DNA of 64,000 nucleotides, taken from positions 50,516,101-50,580,100 of the forward strand of contig CM069872.1 in NCBI GenBank assembly GCA_036172665.1, read 5' to 3'. Positions 8,401 through 11,400 of this stretch are shown here, one piece after another (the first letter of the stretch is position 1; every line of letters begins with the position of its first letter). Made by a program: the position numbers and the translations under genes. The stretch comes from Prosopocoilus inquinatus. Its lineage: Eukaryota; Arthropoda; Insecta; Coleoptera; Lucanidae. The notes under the pieces are model-generated. The model ran no database searches. It was not told the origin of the DNA and saw nothing but the letters and a program-made list of their open reading frames with translations.

Positions 8401-11400
8401 GTAACAGAAAAGACACCTTGGAAAACTGATCAAAAATTAATTGGTATGTTATCATAAAATTAATAACAACTACTAAGATAGTTTACTCCAACTTTTGTCT
8501 GTTAAAATTTCTACCACTTTCATTTCATATACACGTTATAAATTCCTTGACTTCTCTTCTAAAAATTTTTCGACTCCTGACAAATGACAAAATATTTCAG
8601 AATATTTGTACTCCATTTGAGAATCTAATTAAATCTCGTCACCTATCAATATTTCTATTTTAAAATTGATCTGTTTCAAAAGTAACACAGTTAAGTCAGA
8701 CGAGGATTAAAAAAAGGCAAATAACCTTTTCAGCTTTGAATAATTTTGGTTTTGGAGGAGCGAATGCTCACATTTTGTTAGCACCTAACGATATTTTAAA
8801 AGTCAATGACGGCCAACCAAATGATAATCTACCACGATTAATCTGCGCCAGTGGAAGACTAGAAGAAGCTGTTAGTGGGTTATTTGATGTTATCAAGAAC
8901 AAAAAAATGGACGTCGAGTACGTTCGATTATTACATGAGATTTTTCGGTGAGCTTTCGAAGATTTTGAACAGTAAATAAAAGAATTATAAAAATATTCTT
9001 TTGAATTTCAGTAATGATATGCCCAACGAAATCTTTCGGGGCTTCTCCATCGTAAACAAAATTGGTGAGCTGAAACGATCAATAAAAATTCGCTCAAAGA
9101 CAAGACGAATATGTTTTATGTTTAACGGCTTTAATGACGAAAAATGGCTGAAAGTTACAGAAGATCTTTTACACCTACCAATTTTTGAAGATACCATGAA
9201 AAGGTGAGTTTCCAATCTAACAATAAGTCATTTATGAATAAATTAAGACGGTATTTTAATTTATGTGAATGGGCAAATAAATACAGCACGAATATGTTGG
9301 TGGTATAAAAAATTTCAAGGCGTTAAATACGTAAACAAAAAAGATTGATGGTGTGATTTTCAAACAAAATATTATTCCTATTTCAAGCTTTTTTTACACC
9401 TTCCTTTCCATGCTTTGTCTGTGTAAAATAATTAAAAAGTTTAAATTACACCGAAACGAGCAGATGATTAGTCTGCAGTTTAAAAATATTGTAGGAGTAT
9501 GTTCTATTTTAAGTACATTGTAAATATTTTATTACAGAATTCAGAATACCCTGGAAAGTCTAAAAAATCAAAGAACTTTCGAACAAGGATACAATGGAAA
9601 AAATAGAAACAATCTGGAGAATCTATTCGGGATAGTTGCAACTCAAATCGGTCTATTGGAAATAATCAGGAAAATCGGCGTCGAGCCTGATTACTTCATG
9701 GGAAACGGTCTGGGAGAGTTAGTTTGCGCTTATTGCGACGGACTACTAAGTTTGGAACAAGTGTTCGTAGCAATTCATCACATAGGGACATCAAAATTCA
9801 GTTTTGGTAAATATAGTAAGGATGAACCAGGTACTATTTCTATTCAAATTGATGAAACCGTTTCTGTTATCATGTATCAATCGATGCAGATTTCACTTCC
9901 ATGATGAAAATCGGTAAAGAGTTATCGACGATAATCGGTTTTCAACAATTCAAGTCAACTAAATGGATTCGAAATCGTTCTAAATCTTCCAAATTTACTT
10001 TATTGGATATACTGTTAAGCCCTGTCGACGGACAAGATGTTTCGCAGGCTTTCTCAGACGTCACTCCTCTCATTATACATTTCGATAACAAAGTTCCACC
10101 ATCCGACAATTCATTGTGTTTAATTGATTTCAGTGCAAATGATTCCATTTTAAGTCTATTGACGAGTATAGGAAGGTAATTTATAAATCAGCATTTGTCC
10201 ATGACCATGATTAACTGAAATAACATTTTAGTTTGTATGAAAATGGAGTGAATCTTAATTTAGCGAATTTATACCCGGAAGTCAAGTATCCCGTAAGCAA
10301 GGGAACATCCATGTTATCTCCGTACATTAAGTGGCAACATGATCATAAGTGGTTTGTTGTAGACTCACAACATGATCACTTTTTTGTAAGCAGAGGGGTT
10401 TATGTTATTAACACAAAATTTAATGACTGGGGGTACGTAAAAGGACACGTAATCGACGGTGAGTAATTTTTTTTATGAATTTTTTTTTTAATAATATATA
10501 AATAATTGAAACACTATCTTGTCCGATGAAAATTATTATAAAAAAATTTGTTGCAAATACTTTCTTGATTGCAGTGAAAACCTCGACCAGCCTCTGTGCA
10601 GCTGTTACAGCCCTATTTGGGGCTTCTTCAGCAGAAACGTAGGTCGAAATTTCCAGTGCTAAAGAAGTCCCAAATAGGGCTGAAACAGCTGTACAGGAGC
10701 TGCTCGAGGTTATCCCTGCGATGAGAAAACGATTTGTAACAATTTTTTTTTAAACTTTCGTTATGCTTTGACAGCAGGCATGACTGCCTTACATAGGGTG
10801 ACTTATTCTATAGCTAACCCGCTTCAATTTGTCTATCCTACTGCAATGTCAGGTCAAAAAGCGAACGTAGAATGTCGCTGTTATATCTATTTATCAAAAT
10901 TATTATATAGGTAAAATTAATTTTTTGCAGACAATTTATTAATTACATATTTTTTAATCTCTAAATAGCTATCCATTTATTAAATAGAGTACAAAATTTC
11001 AGTGGCTGTTCTAGGTCTAGCATTACTGCAAAGATTATTTAGTTGTAATGTTTGCCTAGATGTAAAAAATAATTAGCCTAATTAAAGATACTTTAATAAT
11101 TATATCTTGTTTGGTAAAATATGTATAAGGATATATTTATATTGGACTTTTTCACAGTTAACATTATTTATATTAATTTAATATTTGCTTTTAGGCAACG
11201 TTCTTTTCCCTGCTGCTGGATATTTATATTTGGTTTGGAATTTCGTTTCTGACCAAGCACGTCGTCTGTCGATAGAAAATTTCAACGTTGTCTTTGAAAA
11301 TGTTAAATTTCTACGTGCATCCAACATGTCACGTCAAAATCAGGTTTCTTATAAAATTTCAGTGAAATCAACTGGAGAATTTGAGGTACATAAGTTTAAC

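What the first reader, a model, noticed from the sequence alone, without database searches (positions are those of the whole stretch)
9012..10175. FAS-like megasynthase with intact KS/DH/ER/KR/ACP/TE but a dismantled MAT domain (copy 1)
The sequence shows glycine at the acyl-accepting serine position (GNGLGE for GHSxGE), loss of the GMGSQW-type loop (GFNDEKW), and roughly 70-100 missing residues after the nucleophile elbow. All other catalytic residues I checked are present. In animal FAS the MAT loads both acetyl and malonyl groups, so this protein should be unable to load itself. Either it is fed in trans (a heterodimer with a canonical FAS subunit, or a free malonyltransferase), or it has acquired a different starter or role. 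A trans-loaded animal type I FAS paralog would be unusual.
Basis: partly seen in the sequence, partly recalled or inferred. Interest (0 to 1): 0.78.

Follow-up and report, generated by a model that had tools for sequence, protein, structure and literature searches.

The report
Beetle fatty-acid synthase lacking its loader
This beetle gene makes a fatty-acid synthase that has lost the part that loads its raw materials, and many insects keep a sister protein that kept that part but lost the chain-building centre, so the two may work as a pair.

Summary
Confirmed. Window genes copy 1 (5429-17976) and copy 2 (22107-34050) are intact 27-exon FAS genes. Their MAT domain has lost the Ser (GNGLGE/GNGVGE), Arg, His and ferredoxin-like subdomain; the gap holds a 59-nt intron and no hidden exon. 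KS, DH, KR, ACP and TE residues remain. Between tandem copies the remnant is under purifying selection, dN/dS 0.16-0.24.

MAT-less insect FASs are already published (Finck 2016). What I add: (1) MAT decay recurs in at least six insect orders with the other catalytic residues kept. (2) 'Cluster III' FAS-likes are the mirror image: MAT Ser/Arg/His intact, KS cysteine replaced in 56 of 56 readable, one clade apart from a sandfly singleton in three single-region trees. (3) 0 of 306 sequences readable at both sites have lost both. (4) This genome holds a cluster III gene (C4:59.47 Mb) and a canonical FAS (C8:33.04 Mb). (5) Locust FAS1 and FAS3, both integument genes affecting hydrocarbons in published work, are one of each type.

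Best reading: MAT-dead elongating subunits loaded in trans, probably by cluster III. Loading and pairing are inferred, not shown.

The parts
5429..17976 (+). Copy 1: MAT-dead FAS gene, 27 exons, 2267 aa; 26 introns, 25 GT-AG and one GC-AG (16188-16237)
   Evidence: spliced model, no internal stop; GC-AG intron also in copy 2
5429..8947 (+). Copy 1 exons 1-8: KS domain and start of the linker; Cys (DTACSSS), His (EAHGTG), His (SNMGHSE) present
9012..10175 (+). Copy 1 exons 9-11: KS-MAT linker end and MAT remnant (the finding)
9701..9718 (+). Elbow GGA AAC GGT CTG GGA GAG = GNGLGE, in place of GHSxGE
9831..9889 (+). Intron 10 (59 nt), where the ferredoxin-like subdomain of MAT would lie; in-frame alternative donors at 9807 and 9816
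10232..12802 (+). Copy 1 exons 12-15: DH (HVIDG...; NWVTLIDSMLQ)
12855..13913 (+). Copy 1 exons 16-17: pseudo-methyltransferase / structural linker region (name recalled)
14175..15743 (+). Copy 1 exons 18-20: ER and start of KR
15936..16639 (+). Copy 1 exons 21-23: KR (FSSVS, TNYGM)
16710..16860 (+). Copy 1 exon 24: ACP (LGMDSIT)
16981..17976 (+). Copy 1 exons 25-27: TE (AYSFG, GDHES)
22107..34050 (+). Copy 2: second MAT-dead FAS gene, 27 exons, 87.6% aa identity to copy 1 (1981 of 2261)
   Evidence: model ends at 34041; stop codon 34048-34050
25895..27031 (+). Copy 2 exons 9-11: MAT remnant; elbow GNGVGE at 26557; intron 26687-26745 (59 nt)
1..500 (+). 3' flank of a third tandem copy (copy 0) that lies upstream of the window (C4:50.50-50.516 Mb); the copy itself is outside the window

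Best explanation
Copies 0, 1 and 2 are living members of the insect 'cluster II' FAS family whose own MAT is dead. They keep the ketosynthase, the reducing domains, the acyl carrier and the thioesterase, and are loaded in trans. The likeliest loader is the conserved 'cluster III' FAS-like protein: it keeps a complete MAT but has lost the KS cysteine and the acyl-carrier serine, so it can load but cannot build a chain. I propose that the two pair, probably through their KS dimer surfaces as in animal FAS: the cluster III MAT charges the ACP of the cluster II subunit with starter and malonyl (or methylmalonyl) groups, and the cluster II subunit does all the chemistry. The product is probably a surface-lipid or hydrocarbon precursor. 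Shown from sequence: the MAT loss, the other residues, constraint, the mirror-image partner and its single origin. Inferred: trans loading, pairing, partner identity and product.
For: MAT Ser/Arg/His and about 86 residues gone while KS C-H-H, DH H/D, KR S/Y, ACP S and TE S/H remain in copies 0-2. Purifying selection on the remnant: dN/dS 0.16-0.24 in the three tandem pairs, upper bounds 0.30-0.47. In 101 sequences with MAT Ser or His lost (including models of this genome and one pseudogene), readable residues elsewhere are kept: DH His 101/101, KR Tyr 99/99, ACP Ser 98/98, TE Ser 94/94. Cluster III, 63 sequences: KS Cys 0/56 readable, KS first His 5/62, ACP Ser 4/51, while MAT Ser/Arg/His is complete (by my definition of the class; but no sequence with a replaced KS Cys has a broken MAT, 0 of 306 readable at both). 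MAT is the least conserved domain in 20 hand-picked beetle cluster II proteins (mean pairwise identity 23%; KS 54%, KR 64%) and the most conserved in 18 cluster III proteins (74%; KS 62%, KR 53%), above 15 complete FASs (65%). Cluster III is one clade, sandfly P0081 apart, in KS-only (55 sequences, support 1.0), MAT-only (62, 0.976) and ER-KR-only (49, 1.0) trees. Of 27 beetle genera with a MAT-dead gene 22 also show cluster III; a 23rd, Dendroctonus, is P0155, left out of my genus list. In this genome PF00698 passes its cut-off at three loci only: canonical FAS, cluster III and a probable mitochondrial MCAT. Locust: LmFAS1 (P0276) lacks GHSxGE and LmFAS3 (P0204) has a dead KS and intact MAT; PMC10764717 (section 10 read) and PMC11855270 (passages) report both as integument genes whose knockdown alters hydrocarbons. 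Tribolium TC15337 (MAT-less) and TC000238 (cluster III) are reported lethal on RNAi (PMC5039406).
Against: No interaction, expression or activity data for this species. Blattella has a complete cluster II FAS beside cluster III, so cluster III does not require a MAT-dead partner. Of 19 named non-beetle genera with a MAT-dead gene only 3 (Anabrus, Locusta, Schistocerca) show cluster III in my capped lists; no hymenopteran or lepidopteran cluster III protein was listed, so another loader must serve there. Cluster III keeps TE Ser in 41 of 47 readable and TE His in 38 of 44, so it may have a further function. PMC11855270 scored LmFAS1 with SMART as having all seven regions, and the P0276 record carries a reverse-transcriptase-like insert in its MAT; its Schistocerca relative P0280 lacks both insert and motif. 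Between more distant paralogs the remnant is less constrained (0.31; up to 0.57, interval 0.25-1.03). PMC5039406 concluded that cluster III arose several times.
Confidence: 0.5

Rival explanations
1. The MAT-dead subunits pair with, and are loaded by, the canonical cluster I FAS rather than cluster III.
For: A canonical FAS with complete KS and MAT residues is in the genome (C8:33.04 Mb). Hymenoptera and Lepidoptera in my lists have MAT-decayed genes beside complete ones and no listed cluster III. That the MAT of one FAS subunit can serve the ACP of the other in engineered heterodimers is recalled from mammalian work; I did not find or read it here (search did not list it).
Against: Does not explain why cluster III has kept MAT as its most conserved domain while losing KS and ACP, nor the locust pair (PMC10764717 reports FAS2, the FAS-clade gene, as systemic and FAS1/FAS3 as integumental).
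Confidence: 0.22
2. The proteins have a new role that needs no malonyl loading, for example finishing or remodelling chains handed over by another synthase.
For: MAT gone; cluster II genes are expanded and fast evolving here (20 elbow-exon matches).
Against: KS Cys-His-His is kept in the readable MAT-dead proteins (KS His 95/96 and 96/97, the second miss being my mis-splice); the ACP Ser is kept in 98/98. A non-condensing role would not hold these.
Confidence: 0.18
3. The genes are relics on the way to becoming pseudogenes.
For: Two related loci are pseudogenes or look so (C8:24.30 Mb with 3 stops; C1:43.34 Mb with in-frame stops).
Against: Open 27-exon frames in three tandem copies, dN/dS 0.15-0.24 over the whole protein, reported RNAi lethality of a MAT-less Tribolium FAS (PMC5039406).
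Confidence: 0.05
4. The mitochondrial malonyltransferase (MCAT) loads them.
For: An intact single-domain acyltransferase is in the genome (C5:10.65 Mb, GFSLGE).
Against: Its N terminus looks like a mitochondrial presequence (my reading), whereas animal FAS is cytosolic (recalled).
Confidence: 0.03

Closest known systems
Insect 'cluster II' FASs lacking the MAT domain (Finck et al. 2016, PMC5039406; e.g. Tribolium TC15337, Chorthippus II-a/c)
   Same: FAS-like megasynthase with the MAT lost and the other domains present; in my tree copies 0-2 lie in the beetle cluster II clade (75 sequences, support 1.0).
   Different: That paper reports loss by domain search in Orthoptera, Coleoptera and Diptera and leaves function open; here the lesion is given residue by residue, with selection, in three tandem genes, in more orders, and with a proposed partner.
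Insect 'cluster III' FASs (PMC5039406; ar-clade 3 in PMC10764717; LmFAS3, Tribolium TC000238)
   Same: Same FAS scaffold and same genomes; orthologue here at C4:59,465,541-59,473,638 (58% identity over the model to Onthophagus P0121).
   Different: Mirror image: MAT intact, KS cysteine and ACP serine lost. PMC5039406 describes its KS and MAT as unmodified; I find the KS active site replaced.
Canonical animal type I FAS (solved structure PDB 8vf7)
   Same: Domain order and catalytic residues of KS, DH, ER, KR, ACP, TE.
   Different: No working MAT.
Bacterial trans-AT polyketide synthases (recalled)
   Same: Would work alike: AT-less synthase loaded by a separate acyltransferase.
   Different: Unrelated origin; there the AT is a free enzyme, here it would sit on a degenerate sister FAS. 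Not tested.
Arthropod animal-FAS-like PKSs, AFPK ar-clade 2 (PMC10764717)
   Same: That paper puts LmFAS1, the locust relative of this type, in ar-clade 2 (section 10 read).
   Different: The paper predicts ar-clade 2 and 3 genes to be AFPKs; in the section and passages I read the missing MAT and dead KS are not mentioned. A dead KS makes an independent PKS role for ar-clade 3 unlikely.

Membership tests
MAT-less insect cluster II FAS | Groups with cluster II FASs in phylogeny | tested here: met
   beetle cluster II clade of 75, support 1.0; scarab/Nicrophorus subclade 0.999
MAT-less insect cluster II FAS | MAT domain lost or non-functional by sequence | tested here: met
   PF00698 26.8 bits below cut-off; Ser, Arg, His and subdomain gone
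MAT-less insect cluster II FAS | Other FAS domains retained | tested here: met
MAT-less insect cluster II FAS | Expressed protein with a phenotype on loss | not testable with these tools
   no transcript data; published for Tribolium TC15337 only (PMC5039406)
Canonical animal type I FAS | Functional MAT (Ser-His pair and malonyl-binding Arg) | tested here: not met
   G, I and gap at the three columns
Canonical animal type I FAS | KS, DH, ER, KR, ACP, TE residues | tested here: met
Split FAS loaded by cluster III (proposed) | Partner with live MAT and dead KS in the same genome | tested here: met
   C4:59.47 Mb, model without stops
Split FAS loaded by cluster III (proposed) | Co-occurrence of MAT-dead cluster II and cluster III | tested here: inconclusive
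   beetle genera 22 of 27 (23 with Dendroctonus P0155); other named genera 3 of 19, from lists capped at 120
Split FAS loaded by cluster III (proposed) | Physical association and transfer of acyl groups in trans | not testable with these tools
   needs biochemistry
Bacterial trans-AT PKS | Descent from trans-AT PKS modules | not tested
   sequence is nearest to animal FASs; no tree with PKSs was made

The most novel reading that the evidence does not exclude
Many insects have a two-subunit type I FAS: an ancient cluster III loading subunit (MAT only, KS and ACP dead) and elongating subunits whose own MAT has repeatedly decayed. This would be an animal counterpart of trans-AT synthases, used for surface lipids, in which one loader could serve many elongating paralogs (in this genome 17 degenerate elbow-exon loci apart from the canonical gene, cluster III and one pseudogene).
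Probability: 0.42. Interest if true: 0.85.

Novelty: new variant of a known kind. Interest (0 to 1): 0.66.

Why it matters
Animal FAS is taught as a self-sufficient homodimer. If MAT-dead FASs are loaded by a dedicated sister protein, insects have split the enzyme in two, which would let one loader feed many elongating variants and could help explain large FAS expansions and varied surface lipids. It would also explain why locust FAS1 and FAS3, and the Tribolium MAT-less and cluster III genes, each have strong loss phenotypes although neither looks able to make a fatty acid alone, and would argue that ar-clade 3 genes are not independent polyketide synthases. The idea is directly testable by co-expression of two proteins.

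Tried and rejected
Hidden exon for the MAT elbow: rejected. Pseudogene: rejected. A single KS-/MAT- double loss in the 2x2 (paralog C9:16.54) was an error of my spliced aligner: the DNA reads SNLGHAE there. A quick alignment of all sequences misplaced columns and was replaced by adding sequences to the checked seed alignment. In one search a few 'KS-' rows are birds with a gap at one KS His; I therefore use the Cys-based count. Seven sequences with a gap at the KS Cys column (P0019, P0157, P0195, P0207, P0208, P0213, P0224) were put into cluster III by hand. Rows dropped: 19 of 339 from the tree (too short, plus P0234, P0235 and P0236, over-long records); sequences covering under 75% of a region and all but three birds. 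The clade counts (21 pure clades with Ser or His lost, 25 with any of the three lost) are upper guides, not event counts: they depend on the tree, and Diploptera P0255 is a fragment with no readable Ser. Insect order names are recalled. The repeated loss does not hold at one strength: 42 sequences have lost only the Arg. Papers: the search for mammalian FAS complementation and for insect trans loading or an inactive KS listed nothing on the point apart from PMC5039406; that the pairing is unpublished rests only in an open-licence library. No structure prediction was run: the spliced proteins are not contiguous window translations, and full-length relatives exceed the size limit.

Full report
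What is there. The window lies at C4:50,516,101-50,580,100 of a 650-Mb genome. Copy 1 spans 5429-17976 in 27 exons; all introns are GT-AG except one GC-AG, which copy 2 shares. Copy 2 spans 22107-34050. A third copy lies just upstream of the window. Copy 1 is 87.6% identical in protein to copy 2 and 80.0% to copy 0. Copies 1 and 2 are a mosaic at DNA level: 93.9% over the 3-kb upstream block and 94.8% at the 3' end, but 80.4% over one KS block.

The lesion. Exons 9-11 (9012-10175) are what is left of MAT. The elbow reads GNGLGE (GNGVGE in copy 2), the Arg position is Ile, the His and the ferredoxin-like subdomain are absent: 13 residues against 68 in that block, 227 against 313 over MAT. phmmer against PDB 8vf7 aligns query 20-633 and 720-1072 and leaves 634-719 unaligned. 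No + strand frame of the window offers another GxSxG[EQDN].

The rest is intact and constrained. KS Cys/His/His, DH His/Asp, KR Ser/Tyr, ACP Ser and TE Ser/His are in place in copies 0-2. NG86 dN/dS is 0.24, 0.15 and 0.16 over the whole protein for c1-c2, c0-c1 and c0-c2; the two halves of the MAT remnant give 0.16-0.24, with bootstrap upper bounds from 0.30 to 0.47. Against more distant paralogs the remnant evolves faster than other domains: dN 0.42 and 0.57 for c1 against C3:15.27, where KS has 0.21; and dN/dS 0.57 (0.25-1.03) for its C-terminal half between C3:15.27 and C9:16.54. It looks like a retained, slackened fold, not free sequence.

The genome. An ER-exon search gives 44 matches (lower bound) and an elbow-exon search 20. 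Of the 20, one is the canonical FAS (C8), one the cluster III gene (C4:59.47), one a pseudogene (C8:24.30), and 17 are cluster II loci including copies 0-2. I could read the elbow in 11 of these 17 (copies 0-2, C9:16.54, C3:15.27, C9:0.52, C7:2.79, three at C4:9.17-9.22, one at C4:18.55); none has the Ser. Six were not read. PF00698 passes its cut-off at three loci only: the canonical FAS, C4:59.47, and C5:10.65, which I read as mitochondrial MCAT.

The mirror-image gene. C4:59,465,541-59,473,638 models as a FAS-like protein without stops. Its MAT has GHSVGE, the Arg (SYSRG) and the His (AYHSR); its KS reads DSNWNGG where the active Cys should be, and the KS first His is Tyr. A search for it finds proteins of about 2100-2200 aa, most without the ACP family PF00550, in many beetles and also in cockroaches, termites, a stick insect, Orthoptera, Hemiptera, thrips and a louse. 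These are the 'cluster III' of PMC5039406, which describes loss of the ACP (PP) domain and changes in DH, ER, KR and TE but not in KS and MAT. I find the KS cysteine replaced in 56 of 56 readable members, the first KS His kept in 5 of 62, the ACP Ser in 4 of 51; TE Ser is kept in 41 of 47. MAT integrity is part of my definition of the class, but the test that is not circular is that no sequence with a replaced KS Cys has a broken MAT, in 306 sequences readable at both.

Single origin. PMC5039406 inferred that cluster III arose independently several times. With more sequences cluster III forms one clade, the sandfly P0081 apart, from KS alone, MAT alone and ER-KR alone. The MAT tree is the least exposed to long-branch artefact, since MAT is the slow domain there; its support is 0.976. 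All trees are FastTree approximations.

Repeated MAT decay. Loss of the MAT Ser or His is seen in Coleoptera, Hemiptera, Orthoptera, Hymenoptera, Lepidoptera and Diptera (21 pure clades in this tree, an upper guide), and loss of the Arg alone in 42 more sequences. In beetles every readable cluster II sequence in the tree has lost at least the Arg (75-member clade). By recalled mammalian work, loss of this Arg impairs malonyl transfer; I did not check that here. In the MAT-dead set the other domains are kept nearly without exception. In beetles the conservation profile of cluster II (MAT least conserved) is the reverse of that of cluster III (MAT most conserved).

Outside evidence. PMC10764717 (section 10 read) says LmFAS1 and LmFAS3 were expressed in the integument and that loss altered hydrocarbons, and predicts both clades to be polyketide synthases. 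PMC11855270 (passages) notes that FAS3 lacks an ACP and speculates that FAS3 and FAS5 cannot complete synthesis alone; it scores FAS1 as having all seven regions, which my alignment contradicts. PMC8027674 (passages) says knockdown of two locust FAS genes lowered a subset of methyl-branched hydrocarbons with mixed effects on n-alkanes. The primary locust paper was not read. PMC5039406 cites RNAi mortality of 60%/40% for Tribolium TC15337 and 100% for TC000238.

Mechanism and limits. A FAS with live KS and ACP but no MAT needs charging from outside; a FAS-like protein with live MAT, dead KS and no ACP can only give. Both occur in the same beetle genomes and, in locust, in the same tissue with like effects. 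I therefore propose a split FAS with cluster III as loader. Against it: cluster III also occurs beside complete cluster II FASs (Blattella), and MAT-decayed genes occur where no cluster III was listed (Hymenoptera, Lepidoptera), so canonical FAS may be the loader there. Nothing here shows contact or transfer.

Noticed in passing
window 53442-53528 (-): A 29-residue stretch about 90% identical to the FGFGGANAHIL exon of copy 1 lies alone on the other strand: a stray exon fragment.
   Followed up: partly
window 2832-5783 against 19500-22456, and 16936-18117 against 33000-34190: Flanking DNA of copies 1 and 2 is about 94% identical while KS exons are about 80%: a mosaic that suggests gene conversion or unequal divergence after tandem duplication.
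   Followed up: no
window 52349 (-): Open frame beginning MSFLIDDILKKRG, resembling the start of a homeobox transcription factor (motif recalled, no search made).
   Followed up: no
P0276 (Locusta FAS1), MAT region: The record carries a reverse-transcriptase-like insert inside the decayed MAT; Schistocerca P0280 has no such insert. Locusta FAS3 (P0204) also carries Pfam PF00078 in its precomputed list.
   Followed up: partly
P0081 (Phlebotomus): A sandfly FAS with a replaced KS Cys, intact MAT triad and altered KR and ACP sites lies outside the cluster III clade: a possible second origin of a MAT-only FAS.
   Followed up: no
Vanessa, Achroia, Linepithema and Neodiprion FAS-like proteins (e.g. 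P0002, P0015, P0031, P0297): MAT Ser replaced by Gly, Phe or Leu with the rest of the MAT still full length: early stages of the same decay in Lepidoptera and Hymenoptera.
   Followed up: partly
C9:16.585-16.615 Mb of the genome: Another cluster II gene with its MAT exon some 26 kb upstream of its ER exon; only its C-terminal half was modelled.
   Followed up: no
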